A DNA stretch of 64,000 bases, from positions 31,674,001 to 31,738,000 of the forward strand of contig NC_091667.1 of assembly GCF_042453785.1 (NCBI RefSeq), given 5' to 3'. Made by a program: the position numbers and the translations under genes. Under the pieces are notes generated by a model. It did no database searches, had not been told where the DNA came from, and saw only the letters and a program-made list of their open reading frames with translations. This DNA is from Malus domestica. Taxonomy: Eukaryota > Streptophyta > Magnoliopsida > Rosales > Rosaceae. Below are positions 5,164-39,643 of this stretch, piece after piece; within the stretch, counting starts at the first letter, position 1; every line of letters starts with the position of its first letter.

Positions 5164-5176
5164 TATAGATAGTTGG

Positions 5177-6195: not shown

Positions 6196-6399
6196 AGTGA
6201 CTTGGATTTTCCAAGTCTCCAACCGAGAAGTTTTCCTCACTCGGGAAATTAAGGGAACACTACCTCAACCTACATGCTCCACTCACAAAGCTTCAACAAA
6301 AGAAAATTCAAAGAACTTAGCGAAGAATGATTTGGTGTATTTAACACAAACGTTGAAATGAAGGAAAGCTTATTTATTGATATTCCCGATAAGCTACAA

Positions 6400-7085: not shown

Positions 7086-7189
7086 TTTCAAAGGTGTTGA
7101 AGAGAGAAGATGTCGGATAAATCAAGATCTTAGAAGTGCAAGAATGGAGCTTCTACTGGTGGATTTCAAGTGTGCTTTAGAACTTAATG

Positions 7190-10600: not shown

Positions 10601-10602
10601 CG

Positions 10603-11239: not shown

Positions 11240-11252
11240 TATAGATAGTTGG

Positions 11253-18870: not shown

Positions 18871-18875
18871 TAACG
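18871..18875. repeat. Target-site duplication TAACG (left) of element A
   Basis: The five bases TAACG directly precede the 5' LTR of element A and recur at 39639-39643 directly after its 3' LTR. Removing the element and one copy restores continuous helicase exon 2 in the same reading frame, which confirms the breakpoints. Confidence 0.95.
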
Positions 18876-19126
18876 TGTTATGACCCAAATTATTACTGAG
18901 GTTTTATGCTTTATTACTGTGAGGAATTGTTAATATACCAGCTGGCATTTAAAAGTGTAGAGGTTTTATAAAAGGAGCCCCAGCTCCCCCAAATGTATCA
19001 GATCAGAATTTTACAAAAGAAATCAATATTGGAGCTCTGCTCCTTCTTCTCTCCTTCCCTCTTCTTCCATAGCTTTCTTGTGCCACTTACAGGTTGATTA
19101 AGGGAATTGAGAATTAGATCTTATCA
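18876..19126 (+). repeat. 5' LTR of element A
   Basis: 251 bp, TGTTATGACCC to GATCTTATCA. A TATA box, TATAAAA, lies at 18967-18973, followed by a pyrimidine-rich leader. It differs from the 3' LTR at 39388-39638 at three positions seen by eye (ata/atg near 18938, ctcctt/ctcatt, cttaca/cttgca). Confidence 0.95.
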
Positions 19127-19973
19127 ATGGTATCATCCTTCTCGAATCCTGGTTTCCCTCCTGTGCACACCCACCCACCTACGTTTTCTGCCATGGTTGC
19201 TGCGCCCAAGGATTCGCTTCGCGAGACCCTGGATGCTCTATTCGCACCCTACCTGGCTAAGATCCGCCGTGCCCGTGAGTTGGCTCTCAGCGCTGAGGGA
19301 GACTCCACTCCAACCCTTATGTTCGCTATCAGTGATGGGGGAGTTCCTGATCCAGCCCCGATGATTGCCGATGACGCTGCAGGAATCGATCTCGGTCAGA
19401 AAATAATTCCACGAGTCGCTGCATCAACTAATCAGATTCTGCCGTTGCTCTCGTCATCGCCGTTATTGCGAGCACTAGCAAATCCTCCTGTCAGGCCACC
19501 GTCGAACTCAAACGCTTCATTGGCAAATTCGCCCAGCCAGCCGCTACACTCAAATGATATTGTAGCAGCCACAATTCCATTGCGGAATGTTGAGAAAACC
19601 AGGCCCGTTGCGATTGTGACCACAATGCCGCTATTTCCGATTTCAGCAACCTTTAGCACTGAATCAGCCCACGCTCACAATCACAACCTCGTTTTGAGCA
19701 CCAAGGAAGCTACAACAATGGCGCATGTTCTGGGTTTTCCTCTCAAGAAAGCAGGAGCTACTAAATCTGTAGGTATATCTCATACAAACACCACGAAGCG
19801 TCGACACGAGGTATTGACATCCTTGCTTTCCAATTCTACAAATCGGAAGGACAAATGGTATTGGGTTTTGCAGGTTATTTTGGCATATTATACTGGTGTT
19901 ATTGTGATAATGTATGACGACTTCTTAACTGATAAATGTGGATGGGGTAATTGGTACCTTGTGGGACAATTTG
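19127..19973 (+). CDS. Element A chimeric ORF, 5' part (interrupted by element B)
   Basis: An open frame starts with the ATG at 19127, the first base after the LTR and overlapping the primer-binding site. It runs 282 codons to the insertion point of B, then reads seven more codons into B's LTR and stops at 19996. With B and one ATTTG duplication taken out, the frame is in phase with the frame at 37296-39445, giving about 998 codons in total. The N-terminal part has an acidic/hydrophobic start (DSLRETLDALFAPYLAKIRR), then a Pro/Ser-rich stretch. I recognise no domain; a diverged gag N-terminus is possible. Confidence 0.75.
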
Positions 19974-22238
19974 TGTTACACGCGCCCCTAATTTAAATCG
20001 TATTTTTACTAAATTTGAGTTTATCTTGCTTTTAAAATTATTTTTGGGTTTTAAATGGTGTGCCCAAGGCCCACCCCCTGTTTTGTCCCCCGTTCCCTTT
20101 CCCTTTCTTTTATTTATTTTCTTCTTTCTTCTTCTTCTTCTTCTTCTTTTCTGTTTCTTTTTCTTTCTTTTCCGTCTGTCCCTCTCGGCTCTCTCTGCGC
20201 CCTCTCTTCTCTGCACCGCAACAAGCACACGCACGCACCCATTGCACCTGCGCGAGGAAGACCATCATCATCTCGTCCTGCTCTCTCTCCCTCTCGTGTT
20301 TGCGAACCCAGAAAATCGGAAAGGATCTTCCGCGAGATTTTTATATTTTCCGGTTAGGTAAGCCTCAAATCCCTCTCTTTCGTCCTAGAATCTTTTGAGA
20401 ATGGGTTCTAATTGGTTTTATTTCGTGATTTTTGGAGGTTTTAGGATGAAAACAAACTCGGGTGCAGGAACACCCATTTCCGGCGAGGAACCCGCCACTT
20501 TCGAGTTAATCTCCGGCCAAACCACGGCGAGTTGGCCGGCGTGCAAGGTATCAATCTCTTCGTCTCGTCGATTACTACAACTTTCCTTTTTGTTTCACCC
20601 AATTTCGTTGAGTATTGAAGAAGTTATACTCATTTGAATCTTACCCAGTTTCCGGCGAGTCCGACGGCTTTCGAGGCGTTTTCCGGTCAAACCACGGCGA
20701 ATTAGACGTCGTGTGAGGTACCATTCTCTTCGTCTCTTCGAGGGCTACAACTTTCGTTTTTGTCTCGCTTGATTTCGTTGAGTTTTAACAAAGTTATAGC
20801 CATTTAAAATTGGGTGGTTTTCCGGCCGAAATTCCAGCCTTCTTCTTCCTCGGGTCCGGCGACCCATCAAACTTGGGCCCTTTGGGCCGTTTCTGTTAAG
20901 GGCTTTAAGCCCAAACCCTAAACCTTTGGGCTTTAGGACCAAACCCAAGAACCCAAACCCTATGACCCAAACCCGGATCCAAGCCCAGACCCGTTTGACC
21001 TGGTCCGACCCGGATCCTGACCCGTTGACTTTGACCGGTCAACGTTGACTTTTCTAGTTGACTTTTCGGGTTTTCGTCCAAGACCTTCCTAGGCTAATTT
21101 CGACGTCCTGGATCCGTTTTTGAAGTTCGTTTTCCCAAATTCAATCGTTTGAGTAGAGTTTGACTAAATGGATCATTTATGTGCTTAGGTGAATTTAATG
21201 ACGGCGGTTCCGTTATTCCTATTTGGTATGGCGTTGCACCAACGGTGTACGGTGAGTGGACCCCTTCTAAAATGCATGTTTTATAGTAGAAATGCATACA
21301 TAAAAAGTATGATTTGATGATTACCTTTTATGAAACGTTTTGTGAGATAACATGCTTATTGAGGCTACTTTAAATTATTACTATTTTTCCTATAACCCGT
21401 GTTCTTATAGAATATCTGATGGATGACGATATGATATTAGAACATGTTTAGAACACCTCTTTATAGTATAGATGATGGATGACTTTATACTATGAAGTTG
21501 TTTTTCAATATATATGTTCAATGGTTTTGTACTTACCTAGTGGTCATTTCCGCTACGGGACGTAGGGATAGATTCCGGTCATTCCCGGGCGACGGTTTGG
21601 TGTTGGCATAGGGCCTGGAGTGTGTTTCCTCTGGCTATTTAGCACAGGGACGGGGAGCCGGCATGGGGCCTGAAGTGTATTTTCCTCTGACTGTCTGCTC
21701 AGAGACGGGGAGCCGGCATGGGGCCTGGGGGTTATCGGACAATTCACTAGTGATTATTATATATATAAAAGTTATGATTTGAGACACTGCACATCATGCT
21801 AGGTTTCGGAAAACCTATGTTTATCATTATATATGTGTTTTCATAAAACTTGGGGGTTAGTACGTTGATAACTGTTTTGTTATATTTATATCAAATTGGT
21901 CCACTCATGTTTGTTTTGCGCCCCCTTCAGGATTTAGGATCGAGGCGTACAATCCCGGCAATCCAGGCACTTCCGCATCGGTATCTTCAAGTCCTCTCGG
22001 TGTAGAACCCACTTCTGTGTTCATTCAATTTTTATATTAATTCTTTTAATGTTCTAGATTAGATGTGTGCTCTGAACACGTTCCTTAAATGCATATTCTT
22101 TATTCTCTTATATTTATAAGTTTTATCTATCCTTTATTTTCAGCAATTGCACTCAATAAATGGCTTTCGTCGCCCTCGGGTGTCGGCCAGCACGTGACCA
22201 TCCTGATATCCTGAGGATATCGGGATCGGGGCGTGTCA
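19974..22238 (+). repeat. 5' LTR of element B
   Basis: 2265 bp, TGTTACACGCGCC to GGGGCGTGTCA. It contains a TTC-rich microsatellite (near 20129-20150) and a stretch of abundant CCCAAACCC/GACCCG words (20890-21060). A 55-bp tandem repeat lies at 21605-21730. Short open frames within (Ser/Phe-rich, Arg/Lys-rich on the other strand) follow the low-complexity DNA and are not taken as genes. Confidence 0.95.
21605..21730 (+). repeat. 55-bp tandem repeats with hairpin potential in B LTR
   Basis: Units starting GGCATRGGGCCTGRAGTGT begin at 21605 and 21660, with a partial third at 21715. Each full unit contains a short stem, CTCTGA/TCAGAG in unit 2 and CTCTG/CAGGG with GCTA/TAGC inside in unit 1, then GACGGGGAGCC. 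The same array is in the 3' LTR near 36656-36781. Confidence 0.75.
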
Positions 22239-25200
22239 GATTGGTATCAGAGCGTGGTTTGTTCAGAGCATACTTAGGATCCTCTTCTATTATCGTAGAG
22301 TGTTGGTTTTGACATCATTTGGATGTCCAGACTTCTAGATTTGGTGCCATTCGGCGCAGTCGTGCGAATCTTCCTCTATTTGAATTGTCACATTCGGGTT
22401 GATATACAAGAATTTGTGTCGGGATTGTGCCTCATCGGTGACGTGTTTGAATTGTTGGACGACTTTCAGCTTCAGATTGATACTCTACGACGTGCATTCC
22501 CTGGGAATGACGGGCATAGTCGGTGTTACTTGGAAGCGACGGATTTTAGAAATCTCAGCTTAAGGAAGTCTGGTCAAGACCAGCTGTAAATTCGAAATGG
22601 CGATGCCACTCTACAACATGCGTTCCCTAGGAATTGCGGGCGGAGTCGGCTTTGCATCGAAATCTTGGGAAGCGGAAAAAAAATCTTGGCAGTACGAATT
22701 GACTAAGACCAACTGGAGTTCTGAAGCGGTGTTGTACTCTGCAACATGCGTTCCTTAGGAATGGCGGGCAGAGTCGTATCTCTTTAGAAATTACTCGAAA
22801 CTTTCGAAATGCAGATTGAAGAAGCGAGTAAGTGCTAGTGGTGACGACGGTTAGTAGGTGGTAGTTGGTGGGAGCAAAATCAATGTTCTCGAACTCATTA
22901 CCACTGAAGAAATTTGGGTGAATCTTTATAACAGTTCTCTGTGATTGTTTTATCGATTACCTTCTCGTTTATTCCAACGACGAAGTCAAGTTCACTGACC
23001 TTTGATCGTCAGCTTCACATCAAATCCCTCGAGAGTTGACTTCGTCTAGAGATTATACTTTTCTTGGGAAACTCCTCGGTAGCAGACGTTATTCTCATCA
23101 ATTTCGAAATGGAGTTGCGATTCTTGTTGTTGTTGTAGTTGAACTTGGATAATGAAGATTCAGCCTTGTTTGGATAAACAAATTCCTTGAACTTCACCTG
23201 GGTTTGGTACTTGGTAGTAAACCCTAGTTCCTCATCCGTGTACTTTTCAGTGAAGGTGAACTTAGTCCCTTGCTTGCAACCTAACTGTTCAGCCTTGTAA
23301 TTTTCAGCGTAATGGCTTGAGACTCTATCATATTCATCATTGTACGAAGATCGAGCTTTACTCTGAACTTCTCTGGGCTCGTTAAGCTTTGATTTGCTCA
23401 GAGGCATCACTTTAAGGTAGCCAATCGTGTCACTGCATGCATACACAAGCTGCTTTGTATCTTTCTTCTTCGTTATTCTGCTGATTCAGAGGTTTTATGT
23501 TTAATTTCTGAATTTTTAAATGACTATCGCGAAGTACCGTGAATCTCGAAATGTCTTTGGCCTCGTCAAATCTTATTAATAGTTCTTGACTATTCTTGAG
23601 ATTAGACTTGTTCCTTTTGGCTAAGAAACCAGTCGACCTTATTGTGATGAGTAGCCAAATAATCATAAACAGTAACTTCTATTTCTGCATCTTCATTTTC
23701 CTTCGTTTGTTTGTTTGTTTCTCAATGTGAACTGGATCATGCCGGGACATTACACGAAGGGTGTAAAAAAAAAAAAAAAAAAAACGTTTGTTCTCGGCGT
23801 GGTTTCTAGTTCAAATCCGGATATCTTGTACTCTATATTTAATGGACTTGTTTTGAACCTTAAATTCCTGAGTGTTCTTTTAGCCTTATCGACATGGTTT
23901 CTCTCTCAATTAGTGAGAAATTCATGATCGATGGTTTCGGCGGAAGTGTGCGCCCAATTCTTATCGATTTGGACAGGAATGTTGGGAGCATAATCTTTTC
24001 ACAAGCTTACTAGACTTACCAGAAAGAGTTCCACGTGGGTGTGAAGTTTGAGTTGTCTTTTGGTAAGAGACTGGTGAAGATTGTGGTGCAGATGATTAGC
24101 AGATTGTATCACTATCTTCACGCTGAATTGAATGGTCACCATTCATTATCCTGCTGCAATTCATAATCATCATATCTTACTCTGGTAGACATTTTTGATG
24201 ATGTGTTCGCCTCAACGCAGCTTTCCACTACCTCTCACCAGGATCCTTCGGTTCGAGAGCACGTGGGCGTGAGGTTGAGCGGTCTTTTAGTAAGAGTTGG
24301 TTGAAGGTTTTAGTTCAGAAGGTCAGCATATTGTATCACCATCTTACTAGAATTCATAGGCATCACATCGGTTATTTTCCAACGATATGTGTTCGTGTCA
24401 ATGCATACTTCGACTGCTTCACTTCTGAACCTTATTCTTGTGAGTATGTGGATGTTGAATCACTTATAGCAGATTTGTTTGGTGCACTCTGGAATGGCAC
24501 CACAACGTAGTTGAGATAAGAATCGGAAGATCTTTGCACTTTTTGCGAATGGTGTGTGCTCTCATGGGGTGTTTAGGTTGATTGCATGAGAGTCATTCTT
24601 TCCTCCAACATTGATCTTGTTTGACTAGAAATCTGCAACTAAGCAAAAATGGAGAGGTGGATTGAGCACTACAACAGTTCCCAAGAGATACTGCGTGTTG
24701 AGGAAGATGACTTCTCGTTTTCTGCTTACCTAGTTCGAGCTTTTGGGTCTACTACTAACATGGTGGCCACTTCTCTTGAATCCCAAAGTACAGTTTCAAA
24801 TGGGTTCTTTGTTGGCATAACTCTGGAGTAGTTGGTCACATTTGGAATAACTGAGGAAGAGGTTGTGCTTGGTACTAAAGGGAGTTAGTATGACGATAGT
24901 TATTGGTTTTGTTCGATTTGGGTATGGCACTATTTGCGACATGGTACGAGAGTTGCTACACGCAACATTGGTTGATAGAGGAGACGTGCAAGCTTGTACT
25001 TGGAGGATCGAATTTTCGACGTGTGAAATTGTGCACCCTCAGGAAATTACTGCTTGTTTACTGAGACAACAAATGTGTGGTCGATATCGCGGGCGGCCGA
25101 CTGTGGTATCGATAATTTATTTGTTGGGTTCGTTAAGCAAGTGGGGCAGGAATATCCTTTTACGGCAGCCGTTAAAGATTCACTATTGTTAGAACTGGAC

Positions 25201-25709
25201 CCAAAGACACATCTATTTTCGGAGTACGCGACGTTTCGAATTCTTGGGCAAGACCCACTCTCATTCTTCAGTTTTGGTTTTCAGTATAAGTATTTTAACC
25301 TCATTTACTCTAGTTAATTGTTTTGCCATTACAAATGTTTTTGGAAAAGTATTTCCGTTTTCAGTTTTTAAGTGTAGCTCGAATTTTCAACCTATATGTT
25401 GGTACATATCCATTTTGACGTTATCGTATGTTATGTTCTTACTTTTGACCTTAATCTATTTTATGTTTTCGACTTTATATCTTTATAAAGTATGTTTTCT
25501 ACTTTTACACTGATGGGGAAGAAAGTAAGCTTGGAGGCATGATAGAGGATTTTGCAACCCGCTCGCGACGGTGTGGTATATTCTCTTTGATGCACCCACT
25601 CTGACTTGATTTCTCTTTATACATATATTCTTCTTACTATTTTCGTGTATTTCAGTTTAGTAGGTGATTTTAAATTTCGGGGACGAAATTCTTTTTAAGG
25701 GGGGTAGAT
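22239..25709 (+). other. Non-coding interior of element B
   Basis: 3471 bp between primer site and polypurine tract with no gag-pol frame. Three imperfect repeats of about 125 bp centred on ctacaacatgcgttccctagg and gcgggcagagtcgg occur near 22480, 22610 and 22737. A 22-bp A-tract at about 23766-23784 hints at a retroposed insert. The only long frame is antisense at 23015-23446. Confidence 0.75.
23015..23446 (-). CDS. 143-codon antisense ORF in element B, unknown
   Basis: An open frame on the strand opposite to element B. The product is hydrophilic, rich in Lys, Glu, Ser and Tyr (SKARSSYNDEYDRVSSHYAE; KFTFTEKYTDEELGFTTKYQ). The residue composition looks like protein rather than random sequence, so it may be a captured host-gene fragment. 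I do not recognise a family. A second frame continues upstream at 23430-23666. No promoter or start context supports expression. Confidence 0.35.
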   Translation of the reverse strand: MYACSDTIGYLKVMPLSKSKLNEPREVQSKARSSYNDEYDRVSSHYAENYKAEQLGCKQGTKFTFTEKYTDEELGFTTKYQTQVKFKEFVYPNKAESSLSKFNYNNNKNRNSISKLMRITSATEEFPKKSIISRRSQLSRDLM

Positions 25710-27191
25710 TGTTACACCCGCCCCTAATTTAAATCGTATTTTCACTAAGTTTGAGTTTATCTTGCTTTTAAAATTGTTTTTGGGTCTTAAATGGTGTGCC
25801 CAAGGGGCCCACCCCCTGTTTTGTCCCCCGTTCCCTTTCCCTTTCTTTTATTTATTTTCTTCTTTCTTCTTCTTCTTCTTCTTCTTTTCTGTTTCTTTTT
25901 CTTTCTTTTCCGTCTGTCCCTCTCGGCTCTCTCTGCGCCCTCTCTTCTTTGCACCGCAACAAGCACACGCACGCACCCATTGCACCTGCGCGAGGAAGAC
26001 CATCATCATCTCGTCCTGCTCTCTCTCCCTCTCGTGTTTGCGAACCCAGAAAATCGGAAAGGATCTCCCGCGAGATTTTTATATTTTCCGGTTAGGTAAG
26101 CCTTAAATCCCTCTCTTTCGTCCTAGAATCTTTTGAGAATGGGTTCTAATTGGTTTTATTTCGTGATTTTTGGAGGTTTTAGGATGAAAACAAACTCGGG
26201 TGCATGAACACCCATTTCCGGCGAGGAACCCGCCACTTTCGAGTTAATCTCCGGCCAAACCACGGCGAGTTGGCCGGCGTGCAAGGTATCAATCTCTTCG
26301 TCTCGTCGATTACTACAACTTTCCTTTTTGTTTCACCCAATTTCGTTGAGTATTGAAGAAGTTATACTCATTTGAATCTTACCCAGTTTCCGGCGAGTCC
26401 GACGGCTTTCGAGGCTTTTTCCGGTCAAACCACGGCGAATTAGACGTCGTGTGAGGTACCATTCTCTTCGTCTCTTCGAGGGCTACAACTTTCGTTTTTG
26501 TCTCGCTTGATTTCGTTGAGTTTTGACAAAGTTATAGCCATTTAAAATTGGGTGGTTTTCCGGCCGAAATTCCGGCCTTCTTCTTCCTCGGGTCCGGCAA
26601 CCCATCAAACTTGGGCCCTTTGGGCCGTTTCTGTTAAGGGCTTTAAGCCCAAACCCTAAACCTTTGGGCTTTAGGACCAAACCCAAGAACCCAAACCCTA
26701 TGACCCAAACCCGGATCCAAGCCCAGACCTGTTTGACCTGGTTCGACCCGGATCCTGACCCGTTGACTTTGACCGGTCAACGTTGACTTTTCTAGTTGAC
26801 TTTTCGGGTTTTCGTCCAAGACCTTCCTAGGCTAATTTCGACGTCCTGGATCCGTTTTTGAAGTTCGTTTTCCCAAATTCAATCGTTTGAGTAGAGTTTG
26901 ACTAAATGGATCATTTATGTGCTTAGGTGAATTTAATGACGGCGGTTCCGTTATTCCTATTTGGTATGGCGTTGCACCAACGGTGTACGGTGAGTGGACC
27001 CCTTCTAAAATGCATGTTTTATAGTAGAAATGCATACATAAAAAGTATGATTTGATGATTACCTTTTATGAAACGTTTTGTGAGATAACATGCTTATTGA
27101 GGCTACTTTAAATTATTACTATTTTTCCTATAACCCGTGTTCTTATAGAATATCTGATGGATGACGATATGATATTAGAACATGTTTAGAA
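25710..27191 (+). repeat. 3' LTR of element B, left part
   Basis: First 1482 bp of the 3' LTR (TGTTACACCCGCC onward), ending at the TAGAA target duplication of element C. The LTR continues at 36506-37290. Differences from the 5' LTR include a 2-bp indel in caagg(gg)ccc. Confidence 0.95.
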
Positions 27192-29370
27192 TGTCACAGC
27201 CCGTCCCGGGATTTCTATATCGGGGGCGTGAATTGACGTAACTACCCTTGACGGACATTCGGGTACGTGTGTGTGCGACATTATTGAATTAATTTTGTAA
27301 GTTTTGGGATTTTAATTTTGGAATTTGGAAATTTTTGTGGTTAGGGAATTGGATGGATGGTGAGGATTGTGTTGGACCACACAATCACACACACACGCAC
27401 TCCCTGTCTTCTCTCCCTCCCGTAGCTCTCTCTGTCCCTCTCCCTCACGATCTCTCTCTTTCCCCTCACCCTATACGTACGGCCTTCACCCAAAACCCTT
27501 CAAAACTCGACGGATCGAGGCAAATAAGGTATGCATCTTCATCCTTTCGTCGTCCTGAGTTCATTGGTGCTAGTTTTAGGAAGTGAAACCTTCGATTTCA
27601 CATAGATCCCGAACCTCCATTTTTGAGGTACTGTTCATGCGAACGTAAAATGTTGTGTTTCAGGAGATTTCAAGCTTGTGGTGAGCTTTAGGAGGTTCTA
27701 AGGAAGCTCGGGGACGTTCGTTGGAGAGTTTTGGACGTCGGGATCGTAGGTTTCAAGTTTGGCCGAATCTTTGGTTTTTCCAAGGTGAGATTTCGTAGTT
27801 TTTAGGCCCTAAAACAAGTCCAACGTGATTGTACACTCTTAGGGCTTCAATTTGGTATAAAATACGAAGAAAATGGGTGAAAAACGAAGGAGAATAGTGA
27901 GTTTGAAAATCGGCCGGAGTTCGGCCGGAGTCCGGCCACCAGAGAACCAGTCCGGCGAGACCTGCGAAGAAGACGACACGTGCGCTGCACGTGCTGCGCG
28001 TGGCCAGCGCGTGGACCCGTGCCACGTGTGGCGCGTGGGGGCGCGTGGGGCTTCCAAAAATTTTTCTAAAAATTTCTCGACGCTCGTGACGTCGAGTAGG
28101 TCGATGTGGTATATTATTATACCAAAATTGAGCATCGTATGAGAAGTTATTTCAAATTATTGGTGATGTGCTTAAAATTAATGTTTTTATAGTTGTTTCG
28201 CATATAGGTGAGACGTATCCCGAGGACGACCGCATCCAGGGACGCCACGGGGGTTACGACCCGTCGACTTATCAGTGAGTGGGCAGTTTTGTTTTCGTAT
28301 TACCTATATACTACTGTTTTTCCCAGAAAAATGTTTATATGAAAATATGTTTTGAATATGCCATGCATAGAATTATTTGAAAATCATGAATTGGTTTATG
28401 AACTATATGATTGAAATATGATGCATACATGTTGCATGGTGCTGTGGAGGCACAGGTAAGTCAGGTGAGTTCATTTATTCATTGAATTGTTGTTGTTGAG
28501 ATGAGTTGAGCTCATAATCTGCACCCTAGGTGTTAGTGCTTATATTATTCACCACACCGCACGCTCGTCTTGGATCCAAGTAGGTGGATGTCGTACAGAC
28601 CATGTGAGGGTTCCGACATGCTAGTCGTACAGATCACTAGGCGTGATTCCGACTAGTGGGTGACCTTAGTTATGCGCGCTGATGATATGATGAGAGAAGC
28701 ACTAGAGCGTATTTTTACACCTTTCATCGTATAGACTACCTTACGTAGTTCCGAGTGATGTGCAGAGTAGGGCCGTATAGGTCACTGTGGTGACTCCGGC
28801 TTAGTGGGATTTGAGCTATTGAATTAATCGTATAGGACCAACTGCAGGGTCTCCGATTGATTCCTTATTCACCTGATTTATATTTTTATTTATGTCATGG
28901 CATGTTTTCTTGAAAATGTTAAAGATTTGAGATTTAAATGTTGAGATTTTATATGGTTATATATTTCTGGGAAAGTATACAGGTTTTTACGGCGAGGGGA
29001 TATAACTGTTTTAATGAAATGTTTTGGAAAACTAATTTGTTTTACTGACCCACTCATTTTGTTTTGCGCCCCTCCAGGTTCTAGTTTAGCGGTGGTTGGC
29101 TCACGAGGTCCTTTCCGGCTTTCTGACAGATTTGGGACATGTAGGACTCACCTGAGGGTGATGTATTCTTATTTTAGTCCTACTTGACTGCAGTTAACCT
29201 ATGCTCTGAACTTATGTGTTTACTTGTAACTCGTCCGGTTATGTCCGTATGTGGTTATGTTGAGTTTGGGTTGAATTTCTGTTGTTATTACGCTTCCGTG
29301 TCGTGCTTATGGTTACGTCACGCCCACGTGACGGCCAGCACACCTGGATCCTCCGGATCAGGGTGTGTCA
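27192..29370 (+). repeat. 5' LTR of element C
   Basis: 2179 bp, TGTCACAGCCCGTCC to CAGGGTGTGTCA. It includes pyrimidine-rich tracts (27385-27465), repeated CGCGTGG words (27980-28045) and the five-hairpin array at 28588-28863. Confidence 0.96.
28588..28863 (+). repeat. Array of five two-tier hairpins in C 5' LTR
   Basis: Units at 28588-28619, 28621-28656, 28724-28758, 28770-28802 and 28821-28863. Each reads: outer stem ending CG, then TAYAG, inner stem, loop, inner stem, then TC, CG and outer stem. Outer stems are ATGTCG/CGACAT, CTAGTCG/CGACTAG, TCATCG/CGA-TGA (one bulge), GGGCCG/CGGCTT, and GAATTAATCG/CGATTGATTC. Inner stems are ACC/GGT, ATCAC/GTGAT, ACTAC/GTAGT, GTCAC/GTGAC and GACC/GGTC. 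Stem sequences differ but pairing is kept, while the TAYAG/TC internal loop is constant. The array recurs at 35718-35993. Function is unknown. Confidence 0.85.
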
Positions 29371-29373
29371 GTT

Positions 29374-29385
29374 TGGTATCAGAGC
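29374..29385 (+). promoter_or_regulatory. Primer-binding site of element C
   Basis: TGGTATCAGAGC, three bases after the 5' LTR, matches the complement of the 3' end of plant initiator-Met tRNA, the usual primer for this class. Confidence 0.93.
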
Positions 29386-29449
29386 TTAGGTTGCAGTCCT
29401 GTAAAATTGTTAATGTCTTAACGATCTTTTGATGTTTTCTGTCAGAATC

Positions 29450-32400
29450 ATGCCGCCTCGTAGAGAGCGTAGGGAGTCCCGCCGTACTCCTGAACCTAAT
29501 TTCCCAGATATTACTCAGTTAGGGGAAGCGATGGCCCAGGCTTTACAGAATGTGATTCGTCCTCCCCCTCCTCCGAGGACACCTCTGGAGACCATGTACA
29601 ACTTGAAGTTAGATCGGTTTATGGGTAATGAAAGTCATGAGGGGGCAGAGAAATGGCTTGATCATATTGAGAAAACCTTTCAGGTGATGCAGAGTCAGGG
29701 GAATCTCCCTGCTAATAGGTGGGTGGAGACCACCACTTGGTTTCTGGGTTGTGAACCAGCAGCATGGTGGATAAATCAGGCTAGGTACATGTCACCTGAG
29801 ACGGCAGCCGACTGGAAAGTATTCAAGGAGCATTTTATGAAGAGATTCGTTCCTCCTGAGTATATTGACCGTAAGAAGCAGGAATTCACCAGGTTGAAAC
29901 AGAGAAATATGTCGGCACATGAATATTATAGAAAGTTTACTGATTTGTCTCGTTATGACACTGATATAGCTGGTAATCAGGGAGAGATGCTTCGACGTTT
30001 CAAGTTGGGATCTAAGAAGAAGTGGCGTACCTTTGCCAATGCACTTCCCTGCGCTGATTATCATGAGTATTTCGAGATTTTGGTTAGGATGGAGGACTCT
30101 GATAATCTTCCTGACAGTGAGGATGACGAGGACAAGAATGAGGGTCAGAAGAAGAATGATAAGGGTAAGGGTATTTCTATTCCTGGACCTCGACAGACAC
30201 AGAGTTTTAAGAAGAGTGGAGCGAGTTCGAGTTCTTCTAGTGGGGGATATAGTTTTACTGGCCCGAGGAGAGGTGGTGGAAGATTTTCTGGTGGACCCAG
30301 ATTTCAGGGTCAGAGGGATGCTGGTGGATCTGGCGCTCCATGGTGCCGCCGTTGTAACTCCCGTCACCATGGTGAGTGTAGGAGAGGTTCTGGTGCTTGT
30401 TTTACGTGTGGACAGATGGGACATCGGGCTTCTCAGTGCCCCCAGGGTCAGCAGAGACCGCAGCAGACTAATATGCCACCTCCAGCACCAGTTCAGCAGA
30501 GTTTTGGACCGGGTGGTTATGGCCAGCCGAGTCGTGGTGGTGCCTACCACTATCAGGGGGATGCTGCTCCGTATGCTTCCGGACCTTATCAGTATTCTCA
30601 GGAGCCTTATCCTCAGGCAGGGTATTCTCAGGATTTTGGAGGTTATTCTTCTTATTCCTCTATGCCAGCTGGTGGATCGCAGTGGCATCAGGGAGGCCAG
30701 CCCCGTCAGGGGGAAGTTGCTACTGGTGGTGCAGGATCATCCAGGCAGCCTAGTCAGCCAGGCCAGGGACGAGGTAATCAGGGCAATAGAGGCCGAGGTG
30801 GACGTCAGCAAGCTCAGGGGCGAGTTAATCATATGTCCCTGCAGGAGGCTCAGAACCATCCAGACTTGATAATGGGTACGTTAAATGTTCTTGGTCATTT
30901 TGCTAAGGTTTTGATTGATTGTGGCGCTACGCACTCTGTGATTTCTCATACGTTTGCTCAAATAACCCAACCTCACCCTTCACCTCTAGGATTTGATTTA
31001 GAGTTTGCCATGCCTAGAGGAGATAAATGTATTGTGGATAGTGTGTATCTGGGGTGTCCAGTGATGGTTGAGGGCGTGATTATGTCCGCTGATCTTATTC
31101 CGTTAGATATTGTGGATTTTGATGTGATTTTAGGGGCCGATTGGTTACACCATAATCGTGCCCATATTGATTGTTATGGTAAATCAGTTACTTTTTATCG
31201 TCCTGGATTACCCGAGGTTATTTTTGTGGGCGAGAGAAGTGGGGTGAGACATGGAGTTATTTCTGCCATAAGGGCGAGGAAATTATTATCGAAGGGTTGT
31301 CAGGGATATTTGGCACATGTGGTATTAAATGATGTTGCTCCTACTAGTATAGAAGAAGTTGGTGTGGTCAGACATTATCCGGATGTTTTCCCTGATGATT
31401 TGCCGGGATTGCCGCCAGACAGAGAGGTGGAATTCTCTATTGATTTGCTTCCAGGTACGGACCCTATATCTCTGACTCCTTATAGAATGGCTCCTGCTGA
31501 GTTAAGGGAATTAAAAATCCAGTTGCAAGAATTACTTGATAAAGGTTTTATTCAACCTAGTTCTTCACCTTGGGGTGCCCCAGTATTATTTGTGAAGAAG
31601 AAGGATGGAACTCTTCGATTGTGTATTGATTATAGACAATTGAACCGGGTAACGATTAAAAACCGTTATCCATTGCCCCGCATTGATGATTTGTTTGATC
31701 AGCTGAAAGGTGCGTGTGTATTTTCTAAGATTGATTTGAGATCCGGGTATTATCAATTGAAGATTAAAGAAGACGATGTACCTAAGACGGCTTTCCGAAC
31801 TCGGTACGGACATTATGAATTTTCGGTTATGCCGTTTGGGTTGACTAATGCACCTGCAGCTTTTATGAGATTAATGAATGAGGTATTCCAGAAATATCTT
31901 GATAAATTTGTTATTGTTTTTATTGATGATATTCTGGTATACTCTAAGTCCCAAGCAGATCATATCCGACACCTTAATTTGGTGTTAAGGAAATTAAGGG
32001 AGCATCAGTTGTATGCCAAGTTCAGTAAATGTCAGTTTTGGTTGACTGAAGTGGCATTTTTGGGGCATGTTGTATCAGCTCAAGGTATTCAAGTTGATCC
32101 TCAAAAGATTGCAGCAGTGGAGAATTGGGAGCAACCTCGAACCGTCACGGAGGTACGAAGTTTTCTTGGCTTAGCAGGTTATTATCGACGGTTCGTTCAG
32201 GATTTCTCTATGATTGCTTTACCGTTGACAAAGTTGACCAGGAAGGATGTTAAATTTGAGTGGGATGAGAATTGTGAGCGGAGTTTTCAACAATTGAAGT
32301 ATTGCCTCACTCATGCACCGGTGTTGGTACTTCCCGACGATAGCGGTAATTTTGAGATATATAGTGATGCTTCATTAAATGGTTTGGGATGTGTTTTGAT

Positions 32401-34267
32401 GCAGCATAATAAGGTGATTGCCTATGCTTCTAGGCAGTTGAAAAATCATGAAAGGAACTATCCTACTCACGATCTTGAATTGGCAGCAATTGTTTTTGCT
32501 TTGAAAATTTGGAGGCATTACTTGTATGGTGAGAAGTGTAAGATCTTCACTGATCACAAGAGTCTTCAGTATTTGTTTACTCAGCATGATCTTAATCTTC
32601 GTCAGCGAAGGTGGATGGAATTGTTAAGTGATTATGATTGTTCTATTGAATACCATCCAGGTCGTGCTAATGTAGTAGCGGATGCACTGAGTAGGAAACC
32701 TCAAGGTAGGCTTAATGCCTTATATGCGAGTCGTGTTCCTCTTCTTGCTGAATTGAGGACAACGGGGGTAAGGTTGGAAATTGAAGACCGAGATGGAGCT
32801 TTTCTTGCTAGTTTTCAAGTCAGGCCAGTTTTGGTGGACCGTATACTTGCAGCTCAGATGGTGAATGAGGAAGTTCAGGAGTTGGTTCAGTTAAGAAGTG
32901 AAGGGAAAAAGAAAGACCTCAGAATTCGGGAATCAGATGGTATGCTCATGCAAGAAGACAGAATGTATGTTCCGAATAATGAGGAATTGAAGAAGGAAAT
33001 TCTGGATGAAGCACATTGTTCAGCTTATGCGATGCATCCGGGAGGAACAAAAATGTATCATACCATTCGACCATTTTATTATTGGCCGGGTATGAAAAGA
33101 GAAATTGCAGAATATGTGAGCAGGTGTATTATTTGCCAGCAAGTGAAAGCAGAAAGGAAGAAGCCCTTTGGGCGAATGCAACCCCTTCCTGTTCCCCAGT
33201 GGAAATGGGAAAATATAACAATGGATTTCGTGTATAAACTTCCTCGTACGCGAAATGGATTTGATGGTATTTGGGTGATTGTGGATCGACTCACCAAGTC
33301 TGCGCATTTCATTCCTGTGAGGGAGAAATACCCTCTGAATAAATTGGCTAAGTTGTTTATTTCGAAGATTGTCAAGTATCATGGAGTCCCAGTAAATATT
33401 ATCTCCGATCGAGACCCGAGGTTTACTTCTAAATTTTGGGTGGCTTTTCAGGAAGCTCTGGGTACTCAATTACTGTATAGCACAGCTTATCATCCTCAAA
33501 CTGATGGGCAATCAGAGAGGACCATTCAGACGTTGGAGGATATGTTGAGATCTTCAGTACTGCAATTTGGTGATTCTTGGCATGATCGTCTGGACTTAAT
33601 GGAGTTTGCTTATAATAACAGTTTTCACTCGAGCATTGGTATGTCCCCATTCGAGGCACTTTATGGTAGGGCGTGTCGAACGCCATTATGTTGGTCTGAG
33701 GTTGGTGAACGGGTATTAGAAGGCCCTGAGATCGTGGACGAGACGACTCAAAATGTTCAGGTAATTAAGTCAAACCTGAAAGCAGCCCAGGATCGACATA
33801 AGAGTTTAGCGGATCGGCATACTACTGATCGAGTGTATGATGTGGGTGATTGGGTATTCTTGAAATTGTCGCCTTGGAGAGGTGTAGTACGATTTGGGAA
33901 AAGAGGGAAGCTAAGTCCGAGATATATTGGACCTTATGTGATCATTGAAAGAGTTGGTGAAGTTGCCTACCGGTTGGAACTGCCTCCGGAGTTATCTAAG
34001 GTCCATAATGTGTTCCATGTCTCTATGCTTCGGCATTATATTTCTGATCCTTCTCATGTGATCCCTCCTCAACCGTTAGAGATTAATCCGAATTTGACGT
34101 ATGATGAGGAACCGGTCACTATCTTGGATTGGAAAGATAAGGTTCTGAGGAACAAGACGGTGAGTTTGGTAAAGGTATTGTGGATGAACCATTCTGCAGA
34201 GGAAGCCACCTGGGAGACGGAAGATCGGATGAGAGAGATGTACCCAAGGTTATTTTATGGGTACTAA
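29450..34267 (+). CDS. Gag-Pol polyprotein of element C
   Basis: About 1605 codons from ATG 29450 (MPPRRERRE; the frame is open a little further upstream). Order: gag with a zinc knuckle [14 protein letters not shown] (codons at 30398-30439); protease with [10 protein letters not shown] (about 30914-30945); reverse transcriptase with [11 protein letters not shown] and the catalytic FIDDILVYS (31918 onward); RNase H with [11 protein letters not shown] (about 32357); integrase with a His/Cys zinc domain (HPGG to CIICQQVK, about 33035-33150) and D,D,E residues in MDFVYKL, SDRDPRF and QTDGQSERT; and a C-terminal [13 protein letters not shown] plus chromodomain-like region (about 34100-34258). The protease has DCG where D-S/T-G is usual. 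No stops or frameshifts. Confidence 0.96.
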
Positions 34268-34308
34268 GTGGTTAATTGATTGTGGGAATTTCGGGGACGA
34301 AATTCTAT

Positions 34309-34320
34309 AAGGAGGGGAGA
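34309..34320 (+). promoter_or_regulatory. Polypurine tract of element C
   Basis: AAGGAGGGGAGA immediately before the 3' LTR, preceded by the gggacgaaattct word shared with element B. It primes plus-strand DNA synthesis in this class. Confidence 0.9.
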
Positions 34321-34321
34321 T

Positions 34322-36500
34322 TGTCACAGCCCGTCCCGGGATTTCTATATCGGGGGCGTGAATTGACGTAACTACCCTTGACGGACATTCGGGTACGTGT
34401 GTGTGCGACATTATTGAATTAATTTTGTAAGTTTTGGGATTTTAATTTTGGAATTTGGAAATTTTTGTGGTTAGGGAATTGGATGGATGGTGAGGATTGT
34501 GTTGGACCACACAATCACACACACACGCACTCCCTGTCTTCTCTCCCTCCCGTAGCTCTCTCTGTCCCTCTCCCTCACGATCTCTCTCTTTCCCCTCACC
34601 CTATACGTACGGCCTTCACCCAAAACCCTTCAAAACTCGACGGATCGAGGCAAATAAGGTATGCATCTTCATCCTTTCGTCGTCCTGAGTTCATTGGTGC
34701 TAGTTTTAGGAAGTGAAACCTTCGATTTCACATAGATCCCGAACCTCCATTTTTGAGGTACTGTTCATGCGAACGTAAAATGTTGTGTTTCAGGAGATTT
34801 CAAGCTTGTGGTGAGCTTTAGGAGGTTCTAAGGAAGCTCGGGGACGTTCGTTGGAGAGTTTTGGACGTCGGGATCGTAGGTTTCAAGTTTGGCCGAATCT
34901 TTGGTTTTTCCAAGGTGAGATTTCGTAGTTTTTAGGCCCTAAAACAAGTCCAACGTGATTGTACACTCTTAGGGCTTCAATTTGGTATAAAATACGAAGA
35001 AAATGGGTGAAAAACGAAGGAGAATAGTGAGTTTGAAAATCGGCCGGAGTTCGGCCGGAGTCCGGCCACCGGAGAACCAGTCCGGCGAGACCTGCGAAGA
35101 AGACGACACGTGCGCTGCACGTGCTGCGCGTGGCCAGCGCGTGGACCCGTGCCACGTGTGGCGCGTGGGGGCGCGTGGGGCTTCCAAAAATTTTTCTAAA
35201 AATTTCTCGACGCTCGTGACGTCGAGTAGGTCGATGTGGTATATTATTATACCAAAATTGAGCATCGTATGAGAAGTTATTTCAAATTATTGGTGATGTG
35301 CTTAAAATTAATGTTTTTATAGTTGTTTCGCATATAGGTGAGACGTATCCCGAGGACGACCGCATCCAGGGACGCCACGGGGGTTACGACCCGTCGACTT
35401 ATCAGTGAATGGGCAGTTTTGTTTTCGTATTACCTATATACTACTGTTTTTCCCAGAAAAATGTTTATATGAAAATATGTTTTGAATATGCCATGCATAG
35501 AATTATTTGAAAATCATGAATTGGTTTATGAACTATATGATTGAAATATGATGCATACATGTTGCATGGTGCTGTGGAGGCACAGGTAAGTCAGGTGAGT
35601 TCATTTATTCATTGAATTGTTGTTGTTGAGATGAGTTGAGCTCATAATCTGCACCCTAGGTGTTAGTGCTTATATTATTCACCACACCGCACGCTCGTCT
35701 TGGATCCAAGTAGGTGGATGTCGTACAGACCATGTGAGGGTTCCGACATGCTAGTCGTACAGATCACTAGGCGTGATTCCGACTAGTGGGTGACCTTAGT
35801 TATGCGCGCTGATGATATGATGAGAGAAGCACTAGAGCGTATTTTTACACCTTTCATCGTATAGACTACCTTACGTAGTTCCGAGTGATGTGCAGAGTAG
35901 GGCCGTATAGGTCACTGTGGTGACTCCGGCTTAGTGGGATTTGAGCTATTGAATTAATCGTATAGGACCAACTGCAGGGTCTCCGATTGATTCCTTATTC
36001 ACCTGATTTATATTTTTATTTATGTCATGGCATGTTTTCTTGAAAATGTTAAAGATTTGAGATTTAAATGTTGAGATTTTATATGGTTATATATTTCTGG
36101 GAAAGTATACAGGTTTTTACGGCGAGGGGATATAACTGTTTTAATGAAATGTTTTGGAAAACTAATTTGTTTTACTGACCCACTCATTTTGTTTTGCGCC
36201 CCTCCAGGTTCTAGTTTAGCGGTGGTTGGCTCACGAGGTCCTTTCCGGCTTTCTGACAGATTTGGGACATGTAGGACTCACCTGAGGGTGATGTATTCTT
36301 ATTTTAGTCCTACTTGACTGCAGTTAACCTATGCTCTGAACTTATGTGTTTACTTGTAACTCGTCCGGTTATGTCCGTATGTGGTTATGTTGAGTTTGGG
36401 TTGAATTTCTGTTGTTATTACGCTTCCGTGTCGTGCTTATGGTTACGTCACGCCCACGTGACGGCCAGCACACCTGGATCCTCCGGATCAGGGTGTGTCA
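34322..36500 (+). repeat. 3' LTR of element C
   Basis: 2179 bp, the same ends and length as the 5' LTR. The hairpin array is repeated at 35718-35993. It ends at the TAGAA duplication. Confidence 0.96.
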
Positions 36501-36505
36501 TAGAA

Positions 36506-37290
36506 CACCTCTTTATAGTATAGATGATGGATGACTTTATACTATGAAGTTGTTTTTCAATATATATGTTCAATGGTTTTGTACTTACCTAGTGGTCCTT
36601 TCCGCTACGGGACGTAGGGATAGATTCCGGTCATTCCCGGGCGACGGTTTGGTGTTGGCATAGGGCCTGGAGTGTGTTTCCTCTGGCTATTTAGCACAGG
36701 GACGGGGAGCCGGCATGGGGCCTGAAGTGTATTTTCCTCTGACTGTCTGCTCAGAGACGGGGAGCCGGCATGGGGCCTGGGGGTTATCGGACAATTCACT
36801 AGTGATTATTATATATATAAAAGTTATGATTTGAGACACTGCACATCATGCTAGGTTTCGGAAAACCTATGTTTATCATTATATATGTGTTTTCATAAAA
36901 CTTGGGGGTTAGTACGTTGATAACTGTTTTGTTATATTTATATCAAATTGGTCCACTCATGTTTGTTTTGCGCCCCCTTCAGGATTTAGGATCGAGGCGT
37001 ACAATCCCGGCAATCCAGGCACTTCCGCATCGGTATCTTCAAGTCCTCTCGGTGTAGAACCCACTTCTGTGTTCATTCAATTTTTATATTAATCCTTTTA
37101 ATGTTCTAGATTAGATGTGTGCTCTGAACACGTTCCTTAAATGCATATTCTTTATTCTCTTATATTTATAAGTTTTATCTATCCTTTATTTTCAGCAATT
37201 GCACTCAATAAATGGCTTTCGTCGCCCTCGGGTGTCGGCCAGCACGTGACCATCCTGATATCCTGAGGATATCGGGATCGGGGCGTGTCA
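36506..37290 (+). repeat. 3' LTR of element B, right part
   Basis: Last 785 bp of B's 3' LTR after element C and its second TAGAA (36501-36505), ending GGGGCGTGTCA. The ATTTG duplication follows at 37291-37295. Confidence 0.95.
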
Positions 37291-37295
37291 ATTTG

Positions 37296-39445
37296 TGAAG
37301 AAGAATTTTTATGCACTGCAACTGTTTGATCGTCTGTCTAAGAGAGGGAGTGCAAATGTACATGTGCTTTATGTGGCCTCTTTAGATATGCATGATTTAG
37401 AAGCTAGCCCTAAACTGGATGGTAGTAGCAGCAAGCCAAGGGTTAAAGAAGTGTCTTCTGAAGAAAAAGATAATGTGTCTCACATTGAGATTAAGATTAC
37501 TGAATACCATAGCTCCGATGAAAAGTGTGTTCTGAGGTATCTTAATCTTTCAGACAACGCCATGGGCAACTATGGTGTCAATGCATTTGAGTCACTTCTT
37601 AGTTCACAAAACAATTTGAGAGAACTTTATTTGATGAATATGGCAAGGCTCAATATGTGTCATAACATGAGGGAGTGGCACTGCGATGCTATTAGGAAGA
37701 TCAAATGGCTGAATGAGAATGAGATTTCTGTTATGATCAATACCGAAGGACAAGCAAACTATGAAGGTTTTTTTTATTGTATCAAATATGGTGAGGAGCT
37801 CACTTTTAAGCTGTTGCTCTATTTCCAAGCTGTCAAGGCAAAAAGTCTTGGGTTTACTAAACTTGGGTCACCAAAAGAGGCTAAGAAGGTTGTTGGGAAC
37901 ATGAATGATGTTACTGCTAGTGCCAAACAGCTAAAGGAGATGGAACAAGGCTTGACCAGTTTGATAGTTTTGGGGAATGGGCGATTGTCTGATCTTATTG
38001 CACAGCTGCAGGATATATTAGAGGGTGTAAATGAAGCTGATATCTTGCCGGAGAAGTTTGATAATGCAGTTATTAAAGCTCAGATTCCACAATTGGCTCG
38101 AGAAATCAGGGAGTTAACCTCATCTCGACCTGTAACCATCTACAATGAGAATTCTTCCTCTAGTGGGAATTATGCTTCATATTTAGTTCCACTTGCTGCA
38201 CTTGCTGCAATGGGCTATTGTTACATGTGGTGGAGAGATTGGTCATTTTCAGATGTGATGTATGTGACAAGGCATAATATGGCAAATGTTGTTGAAGCTC
38301 TAATTAGAGAGGTAGCTAGCAAGAGCAATGACTTTGCTGGGAACGGAACAACAAATACATTGAAGATGAGTGAATGCGCTATGGGCACCTATTTAGATTT
38401 AGTATGCTCTCTTAGTCACCTGGAAAGCAATTTTGGTGGTGCCTTAGTTATTGATTTACATGTTGAGTTCTCTTTGTTTTTCACTTGTAACCCTGACTGT
38501 CGGCTTTTATGGGATCCAGGAGATGCAATGGCTAAAACTGTTAAGATGATACTCTATTTTAAAAATGTCAAGGCAGAGTGGCTTAACAGGGTTACAAAAA
38601 TAACCAAGTTTGGTAGTTTTATGGTACAATTGGATAGAAGTGTTGAAGCTTTGAATAAGGGCAAAAAGCAAAAAACTAGAGATGGTGGATATGGTGATGA
38701 GATAAAGAGATTGCATGATTTAAGCGTGAACAAGGTTGTGGATATGGCGACTAGGTTCGAAAGTGCATTGGTAGGACATGTTAACAATATAATTTGTAGT
38801 ACTACTGTAAGATTGGAGAGACTTCACTCCGATGATTGGTGGTGTTCTGCTATATCTCAACTGCTGATGATTGGTAAATCCATCGTATCTAGTTCAAACA
38901 AAACTCAGGAAGCAAATGTGGATGCTGTTTTGGGAACCGGTGATCCGAGTCTACTAGTTGAGAACACTTCAGTTGAGCAGCTTGGTTTCGTCAGAAAGGT
39001 GACAATCTTTAAGGACTCCACTTCCATTATTGGTGATGCAGCATCAAAAGATGGGTTGCAAGTCCATGGTGTGTCTCCATTTGACATTATGGGCAGAAAT
39101 CTTTTCTGGGAAAAGCAACTGCAAAGGCTGCAAATGGGAGCTGTCACAAGAAAGTTCTTGGTGGTTAATTTCAGTTCTGGTTTTGATGAATCTTCATATC
39201 TCTCTCGGGTTGAAAATTTTGAGGAGATGTCACAAGAAAATTATGGAGAGGCTACAGGAAACAAGAACTCACTCACTCAGTTCAAGCGAGCTGCCATACC
39301 TGGAAGGATTATAATGATTTCAAAGTCAAGTTCTACAATTCCATTTTTAAGCCTTGAGGACAAGGCTAATTTTCAAGGGGGAAGTATTGTTATGACCCAA
39401 ATTATTACTGAGGTTTTATGCTTTATTACTGTGAGGAATTGTTAA
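37296..39445 (+). CDS. Element A chimeric ORF, 3' part, with RanGAP, DUF1664 and chaperonin-60 alpha pieces
   Basis: Open for about 716 codons in the frame that continues the ORF starting at 19127. Recognisable pieces in order: a RanGAP leucine-rich segment (LRYLNLSDNAMG to LRELYLMN, 37526-37640); a DUF1664 segment (NGRLSDLIAQLQ, SRPVTIYNENSSSSG, YASYLVPLAALAAMGYCYMW, 37950-38298); a plastid chaperonin-60 alpha segment (ALIREVASKSNDFAGNGTT, 38293-38360), where the ATP-site GDGTT reads GNGTT; and a second chaperonin segment (LLVENTSVEQLG, DAASKDGLQ, 38938-39060). The last residues (FLSLEDKANFQGGSIV) resemble the C-terminal tail of some gypsy Pol proteins. The stop lies 57 bp inside the 3' LTR. 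Other stretches are unassigned. Whether it is translated is unknown. Confidence 0.8.
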
Positions 39446-39638
39446 TATGCCAGCTGGCATTTAAAAGTGTAGAGGTTTTATAAAAGGAGCCCCAGCTCCC
39501 CCAAATGTATCAGATCAGAATTTTACAAAAGAAATCAATATTGGAGCTCTGCTCCTTCTTCTCTCATTCCCTCTTCTTCCATAGCTTTCTTGTGCCACTT
39601 GCAGGTTGATTAAGGGAATTGAGAATTAGATCTTATCA
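39388..39638 (+). repeat. 3' LTR of element A
   Basis: 251 bp, the same ends as the 5' LTR, preceded by the AAGGGGGAAG purine tract and followed by TAACG (39639-39643) and helicase exon 2. Confidence 0.95.
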
Positions 39639-39643
39639 TAACG

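What the first reader, a model, noticed from the sequence alone, without database searches (positions are those of the whole stretch)
18876..39638. LTR retroelement whose entire interior is one chimeric ORF of captured host genes
Seen: with nested B and its duplicated ATTTG set aside, the frame from 19127 and the frame ending at 39445 are in phase, leaving about 998 codons without a stop. It starts at the first base after the 5' LTR and ends inside the 3' LTR. Known: pieces match RanGAP, DUF1664 and plastid chaperonin-60 alpha. Inference: host exons were captured in frame and the ORF was kept open, so translation may matter for packaging or mobilisation. An open frame this long is not expected by chance in a non-coding passenger.
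Basis: partly seen in the sequence, partly recalled or inferred. Interest (0 to 1): 0.88.

Follow-up and report, generated by a model that had tools for sequence, protein, structure and literature searches.

The report
Apple jumping gene shuffling host-gene pieces
This is one copy of an apple and pear jumping-gene family that has stitched fragments of many plant genes into a single long reading frame that stays open while its amino acids appear to drift, suggesting that being readable may matter more than what is written.

Summary
Element A (18876-39638) has 251-bp LTRs (3 differences), a TAACG target-site duplication, and an interior that is one frame: 847 nt before the nest plus 2147 nt after it, 998 codons by arithmetic. 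It opens at the first base after the 5' LTR and stops 58 bases into the 3' LTR. RanGAP, DUF1664, DUF7798 and two plastid cpn60-alpha pieces lie in that frame; pyruvate kinase and RRM pieces are probable. 35-43% of codons match host genes. 'Nested B' is two elements.

A is no one-off. 57 family-like proteins were retrieved; all 51 named ones are from Malus or Pyrus. They share leader, core and tail modules but carry different host fragments (UCH, NMD3, Ist1, PRPP synthetase, MFS, thioredoxin). Malus and Pyrus share chimeric junctions. Amino-acid replacements look unconstrained (mean BLOSUM62 -0.44; neutral simulation -0.26 to -0.46; host genes +0.28), yet frames are open. Best reading: a Bs1-like, trans-mobilised mosaic family built by template switching, where openness, not protein, is selected (perhaps NMD escape). 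No other copy's DNA could be read, so dN/dS is untested. New variant of a known kind.

The parts
18871..18875 (.). target-site duplication TAACG, left copy (right copy 39639-39643)
18876..19126 (+). 5' LTR of A, 251 bp, TG..CA
18967..18974 (+). TATA-like box TATAAAAG in the 5' LTR; transcription start inferred about 30 nt downstream
   Evidence: start site is inference
19128..19135 (+). 8-nt primer-binding-like site TGGTATCA (initiator Met tRNA), overlapped by the ORF start ATG at 19127
   Evidence: the tRNA complement used as yardstick is recalled
19127..19973 (+). 5' part of the chimeric ORF (282 codons + 1 nt): family leader MVSSFSNPGF.. and family-specific sequence without host match
19969..19973 (.). 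ATTTG duplication of nested element B (right copy 37291-37295)
19974..37290 (+). nested LTR element B (its own DNA 19974-27191 and 36501-37290), interrupting the ORF of A
27192..36500 (+). element C inside the 3' LTR of B: Ty3/gypsy, LTRs about 2.18 kb at 99.86%, TAGAA duplication, open gag-pol frame 29414-34267 (1617 codons)
37296..39445 (+). 3' part of the chimeric ORF, stop TAA at 39443-39445 within the 3' LTR
37505..37639 (+). RanGAP fragment (78% identity over 45 aa to a host-type RanGAP; a gapped match reaches further upstream)
37631..37792 (+). probable pyruvate kinase fragment (weak)
   Evidence: made on the Malus baccata relative P0021
37835..37915 (+). probable RRM fragment (weak)
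   Evidence: made on relative P0021
37916..38338 (+). DUF1664 fragment
38279..38356 (+). plastid chaperonin-60 alpha fragment 1 (residues 115-140 of P0032), overlapping the DUF1664 match at the junction
38357..38563 (+). family module ..WDPG.. of unknown origin, shared wholly or in part with P0029, P0045, P0054, P0056
38570..38923 (+). DUF7798 fragment
38942..39061 (+). plastid chaperonin-60 alpha fragment 2 (residues 353-392 of P0032)
39302..39442 (+). family tail of the ORF (..LEDKANFQGGSIV..), running into the 3' LTR; similar tail in P0029, which carries other host genes
39375..39384 (+). polypurine tract AAGGGGGAAG before the 3' LTR
   Evidence: sequence read; role is inference
39388..39638 (+). 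3' LTR of A

Best explanation
A is a non-autonomous, probably Ty3/gypsy-derived LTR retrotransposon of a Malus/Pyrus family whose members are mosaics of a family leader, family modules and host-gene fragments. Its genomic RNA is shaped like an mRNA: probably the first AUG overlaps the primer-binding site, one frame fills the interior, and at most 193 nt follow the stop. An autonomous relative supplies enzymes in trans. Host mRNAs and other family RNAs packaged with it are joined by template switching during reverse transcription, so modules are gained, cut back and exchanged. Copies whose new junctions or mutations break the frame leave fewer descendants because translation to the end protects the RNA: a stop deep inside would give a 3' UTR of hundreds of nucleotides or more, a known plant NMD trigger. 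The peptide itself need not do anything. Shown: anatomy, frame, host pieces, mosaic family, Malus-Pyrus shared junctions, unconstrained replacement spectrum. Inferred: Ty3/gypsy ancestry, trans mobilisation, template switching, selection on openness, NMD as the agent.
For: LTRs, TSD, PBS-like and PPT-like sites. Open frame far beyond shuffles. Five firm host pieces, all sense and in one frame; 0 of 10 other-frame translations has a Pfam match up to E 0.1. 57 family-like proteins, some with quite different host domains: UCH, NMD3, cation ATPase, MFS_5, PRPP synthetase N-domain, Ist1 above Pfam cut-offs; Sec7-HUS, gag and PK below; thioredoxin as a precomputed label. Mosaicism: the RanGAP piece ends at the same place in A, P0021 and Pyrus P0022 but begins at different ones; P0029 keeps cpn60 7-139 where A keeps 115-140 with DUF1664 in front. 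The 5' piece aligns gap-free to P0035 over 281 codons with 83 replacements; the 3' piece to Pyrus P0020 over 357 columns with 61 replacements and three whole-codon gaps. Replacement spectrum: 574 changes in 11 disjoint pairs, mean BLOSUM62 -0.441 (SE 0.069) against -0.260 to -0.455 in neutral simulations and +0.277 (SE 0.104) in four host pairs; the same neutral process at 18% divergence would have hit about 8 stop-making mutations per 715 codons. No confident fold: mean pLDDT 44.6 and 28.7. Long 3' UTRs trigger plant NMD (PMC3711448, passages).
Against: All relatives are gene models, found because someone annotated an open frame; broken copies are under-represented, and models can splice around damage. 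Several models are truncated or gapped relative to A. The closest copy, P0001, has a conservative spectrum (12 changes, mean +0.17), too few to weigh. Host control pairs overlap in proteins. No DNA, RNA or ribosome data for any other copy. NMD was not tested. A plant LTR element without intact ORFs has been seen to transpose (AT2TE84980, PMC8704663, passages), so an open frame is not a general need. Some transcriptome studies find little or no trend for long-3'UTR NMD (PMC6173133, passages). Gypsy ancestry rests on a below-cut-off gag match in P0045 and recalled 3'-end resemblance; no autonomous partner was found. Shallow alignments make low pLDDT weak evidence.
Confidence: 0.45

Rival explanations
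1. Plain gene capture with inertia: coding exons were captured in frame by luck and the element is too young to have lost the frame; nothing selects for openness.
For: LTRs differ at 3 of 251 positions, 0.46 to 1.5 My at assumed rates. Close copies such as P0001 (12 replacements, one 3-codon gap in 682 columns) need no selection. Annotated proteins over-sample open copies.
Against: Five firm and two probable host pieces are all in one frame and none was found in others by Pfam; junctions are shared with Pyrus, and relatives at 70-83% identity are still open over 281-357 codons, where neutral change would be expected to have made several stops.
Confidence: 0.3
2. The chimeric protein works: as a Gag-like or RNA-binding helper of the element, or as a new host gene like the proposed role of maize Bs1.
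For: Leader motif in 23 of 57 family-like proteins; open frames; Bs1 is described as transcribed and translated with a potential reproductive role (PMC13317346, passages).
Against: Replacement spectrum like unconstrained change; host domains are fragments; no confident fold; different members carry unrelated domains; this copy is cut by B.
Confidence: 0.15
3. Host fragments serve only as filler that brings the RNA to a packageable length, and the frame is a by-product of choosing coding mRNA as donor.
For: Identified donors are coding pieces in sense orientation.
Against: Sense coding donors would still join in the wrong frame two times in three; no out-of-frame host piece was identified, though only Pfam was used for that control and UTR donors could not be recognised.
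Confidence: 0.1

Closest known systems
Bs1 of maize (original papers not held; seen only through passages of PMC13317346, PMC4717578 and PMC7264820)
   Same: LTR element carrying fragments of several host genes (three in Bs1) joined into a hybrid ORF; exon-only capture
   Different: A carries five firm and two probable pieces from about six genes; it belongs to a Malus/Pyrus family with many different host passengers and exchanged modules; the frame fills the interior from the primer-binding site into the 3' LTR
Gene-carrying TRIMs, e.g. GmaRetroS15 of soybean (PMC4717578, section 13 read)
   Same: LTR element with 5-bp TSD, exon fragments of more than two genes, multi-copy
   Different: those elements are 1,172-1,449 bp; A without its nest is about 3.4 kb with a 998-codon frame; the survey section reports capture in soybean and Medicago, not apple or pear
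TR-GAG elements (PMC8704663, passages)
   Same: non-autonomous LTR element with a single ORF
   Different: TR-GAG encodes a Gag; no gag match in A, only a below-cut-off one in relative P0045
LARDs (definition from PMC4668562, passages)
   Same: LTR element without pol
   Different: LARD interior is conserved non-coding DNA, usually over 4 kb; A is a coding frame of about 3 kb
Coronavirus defective-interfering RNAs that need an open frame for fitness (recalled; one search gave only a search listing)
   Same: proposed principle: openness of a chimeric frame is selected, not its product
   Different: replicating virus RNA, not a retroelement; analogy only

Membership tests
LTR retrotransposon | two direct LTRs with TG..CA ends and target-site duplication | tested here: met
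   251 bp, 3 differences, TAACG both sides
LTR retrotransposon | primer-binding site and polypurine tract next to the LTRs | tested here: inconclusive
   first 8 of 14 nt match the recalled initiator-Met PBS; AAGGGGGAAG before the 3' LTR
autonomous Ty3/gypsy or Ty1/copia element | gag-pol domains in the interior | tested here: not met
   no gag, protease, RT, RNase H or integrase match in either piece of A
Ty3/gypsy derivative | remnant of Ty3/gypsy gag or pol | tested here: inconclusive
   relative P0045 gives Retrotrans_gag 18.5 bits, below the 24.1 cut-off; none in A
Bs1-like gene-transducing element | fragments of more than one host gene fused in one frame between LTRs | tested here: met
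Bs1-like gene-transducing element | captured pieces lack introns (RNA-mediated capture) | not testable with these tools
   structures of the apple donor genes were not available
TRIM | very short element | tested here: not met
   about 3.4 kb without the nest by coordinates; gene-carrying TRIMs 1,172-1,449 bp
TR-GAG | single ORF encoding Gag | tested here: not met
   no gag match in A
LARD | large conserved non-coding interior, usually over 4 kb | tested here: not met
   interior about 2.9 kb by coordinates, open frame throughout

The most novel reading that the evidence does not exclude
In this Malus/Pyrus family the open frame is itself the selected trait: any in-frame host coding sequence will do, because continuous translation from the primer-binding site into the 3' LTR shields the genomic RNA from nonsense-mediated decay or couples it to packaging. 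The element is thus a self-propagating exon-shuffling device that filters host fragments for frame but not for meaning.
Probability: 0.33. Interest if true: 0.85.

Novelty: new variant of a known kind. Interest (0 to 1): 0.63.

Why it matters
Gene capture by plant LTR elements is known mostly from single cases such as Bs1. A family with many different, recombining chimeric frames shared by apple and pear would be a natural experiment in exon shuffling and gives a direct test of whether retroelement RNAs must stay translatable. It also warns annotators: a number of 'hypothetical', 'RAN GTPase-activating protein 2-like' or domain-labelled proteins in Malus and Pyrus appear to be retroelement mosaics.

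Tried and rejected
Whole-genome search for the LTR: the genome search 'own' was asked 14 times in the same form and never answered, so copy number, DNA alignments of interiors and dN/dS are missing. IMG/VR and GTDB contigs: no relatives confirmed. No PDB match up to E 1 for the 5' piece and none up to 0.1 for P0036; an FGGY-kinase reading of P0020, P0023 and P0036 is recalled only and gave no Pfam match. Structure models of both pieces were too poor for fold searches, so none was run. C as the autonomous partner of A was rejected: no meaningful similarity of the retrieved proteins to its frame, best E 0.003 on a 39-residue stretch, and A's LTR has no other full-length match in the window. Literature searches aimed at this family listed no paper that describes it, judged by titles and the starts of abstracts; a pear LTR survey and a Rosaceae TE paper have no occurrence of 'captured' or 'gene fragment' in the main text. 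Bs1 papers PMC2899935 and PMC160511 are not held. Selections made: the host pair P0031/P0033 (n 16, mean -0.25) was left out of the pooled host control, and P0030 and P0027 each occur in two of its four pairs; the 11 family pairs pooled were picked by hand to be disjoint, 10 of them from the 23 and one new (P0038/P0064); P0001 (+0.17 on 12 changes) was in neither set. One search scored only the 7991 candidates sharing most words, so its list is a lower bound. E-values are for small local sets.
Full report
Anatomy. Element A spans 18876-39638. Its LTRs (18876-19126, 39388-39638) are 251 bp, begin TG and end CA, differ at 3 positions and are flanked by TAACG. The 5' LTR holds a TATAAAAG box at 18967; after the ATG at 18993 the next ATG is 19127, the first base of the interior. 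If transcription starts about 30 nt past the TATA box (inference), 19127 is probably the first AUG of the RNA. The ATG overlaps an 8-nt primer-binding-like site TGGTATCA (the tRNA yardstick is recalled), and AAGGGGGAAG lies just before the 3' LTR. The frame ends at TAA 39443-39445; 193 bases of LTR follow it.

The frame. Nested DNA occupies 19974-37290 with ATTTG at both ends. By coordinates alone the two parts of the frame are in phase and total 998 codons. None of 500 dinucleotide shuffles of either part lacks stops.

The nest. B has LTRs of about 2.27 kb and an interior (22239-25709) with no long pol frame. Its 3' LTR is split by C (27192-36500; TAGAA on both sides; LTRs 99.86% alike over 2183 aligned bases), which carries an open 1617-codon frame with gag, protease, RT, RNase H and integrase matches.

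Host pieces. In the 3' part Pfam gives DUF7798 (3.2e-20) and DUF1664 (2.4e-16). cpn60-alpha appears twice (PDB chains; P0032 at 69% over 26 aa and 75% over 40 aa). RanGAP matches at 78% over 45 aa, or 55-57% over 72 residues with gaps. Searched with the relative P0021, the next stretch looks like pyruvate kinase (Pfam 14.5 bits, cut-off 30; PDB E 0.022) and an RRM (PDB best E 7e-4). These two are weak. Firm pieces cover 350 of 998 codons, 427 with the weak ones. The 5' part has no match in Pfam or PDB up to E 1. In the 10 other-frame translations of both parts, with X at stops, no Pfam family appears up to E 0.1. That control used Pfam only.

Host and family. The 3' part finds 33 proteins (candidates capped), the 5' part 32, and the leader of P0022 eight: 64 distinct in all. 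Seven are ordinary host-type proteins (P0025, P0027, P0028, P0030-P0033); 57 are family-like. P0007 (Malus domestica) equals the 3' part at 567 of 567 aligned residues with two gaps and looks like a spliced model of this locus or an allele; P0034 likewise for the 5' part, its last 25 residues matching B's LTR. So the window is very probably apple.

Different passengers. Other members carry, above Pfam cut-offs, UCH, NMD3 and a cation ATPase (all in P0029), MFS_5 (P0056), the N-domain of PRPP synthetase (P0052) and Ist1 (P0060); below cut-off, Sec7-HUS (P0047, P0061), pyruvate kinase (P0021) and gag (P0045). P0064 has a precomputed thioredoxin label. These come from 20 of the 57 proteins scanned; 5 of the 20 had no match up to E 0.1, and several further sub-cut-off matches look like chance. 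A leader motif was found in 23 of 57 and a tail motif in 16 of 57. P0029 shares with A the tail, the WDPG module and a cpn60 piece but otherwise holds other genes.

Mosaic history. RanGAP ends at residue 247 in A, P0021 and Pyrus P0022, and at 265 in Pyrus P0024, which is the same place if that match is to the longer Fragaria protein (18 residues more at the start; one search does not print which). It begins at 203 in A's ungapped match (173 with gaps) and at 128 in P0021. P0029 keeps cpn60 residues 7-139, A only 115-140, with DUF1664 in front. The second cpn60 piece ends at residue 392 in A and in Pyrus P0022 and P0024. Shared ends with different extents mean inherited chimeras later cut and recombined. 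Inheritance from before the Malus-Pyrus split is the simplest reading; transfer between the genera is not excluded.

Open but drifting. Against P0035 the 5' part aligns over 281 codons without a gap at 70.5% identity; against Pyrus P0020 the 3' part aligns over 357 columns at 82.9% with three whole-codon gaps. Among 23 family pairs the mean BLOSUM62 of replacements runs from 0.00 to -0.83; among 5 host pairs from -0.25 to +0.64. P0001, not among the 23, gives +0.17 on 12 changes. Pooled over 11 disjoint pairs, 574 replacements average -0.441 (SE 0.069); four host pairs, 249 replacements, +0.277 (SE 0.104); neutral simulation of the 3' part gives -0.260 to -0.455. So amino acids look unconstrained while these frames are open. 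The weakness is ascertainment: the relatives are gene models, chosen by being open, and some are gapped or truncated. Both parts model without a confident fold (mean pLDDT 44.6 and 28.7), weak evidence on shallow alignments.

Mechanism. Abnormal template switching between packaged RNAs is one described route by which plant LTR elements make chimeras (PMC13317346, passages) and fits sense coding pieces; read-through transduction is the other. Why keep the frame? [quoted passage not shown] the numbers are read as lengths). A's RNA, read to the end, has at most 193 nt after its stop; a stop early in the interior would leave more than a kilobase. This makes NMD escape a natural filter for openness. 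It is an inference; a review notes that some transcriptome studies find little or no trend for long 3' UTRs (PMC6173133, passages), and an Arabidopsis element without intact ORFs can transpose (PMC8704663, passages).

Comparison. The nearest known case is Bs1 of maize, three host genes in a hybrid ORF. Gene-carrying TRIMs are shorter (1,172-1,449 bp) and were reported from soybean and Medicago (PMC4717578, section 13). TR-GAG and LARD definitions are not met. Four searches of the held library listed no paper on such a family in apple or pear, judged by titles and abstract starts; subscription papers are mostly not held.

Verdict. It is a new variant of a known kind. Whether openness is selected, and by what, needs the DNA of many copies.

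Noticed in passing
18371-18877 (- strand); right flank 39610-40008: A lies in antisense orientation next to, and probably inside, coding sequence of a UvrD/REP-type helicase gene: the left flank frames match UvrD-helicase (7.5e-9 and 7.6e-14). The right flank frame was not tested by family search.
   Followed up: partly
1-17200 versus 52132-63997: A direct segmental duplication in collinear blocks (83-99% identical) spaced about 47-53 kb apart; the right copy includes part of the helicase gene region (16811-17200 / 63608-63997) and reaches the window's end before the site of A.
   Followed up: partly
27192-36500: Young Ty3/gypsy element C (LTRs 99.86% alike) with an open 1617-codon gag-pol frame, nested in the 3' LTR of B.
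   Followed up: partly
41620-42027 (- strand): Ty1/copia reverse transcriptase (RVT_2, 5.4e-38) about 2 kb from A.
   Followed up: no
10284-11240 and 14160-15109: Inverted repeats in three adjoining stretches (439, 279 and 244 nt, each 96% complementary), about 2.9 kb between the innermost arms.
   Followed up: no
P0050 and P0043 (relatives): Models begin upstream of the leader, in what looks like LTR sequence; P0050 has a doubled MVS, as if the ATGGTATCA primer-site motif were repeated (sequence; reading is inference).
   Followed up: no
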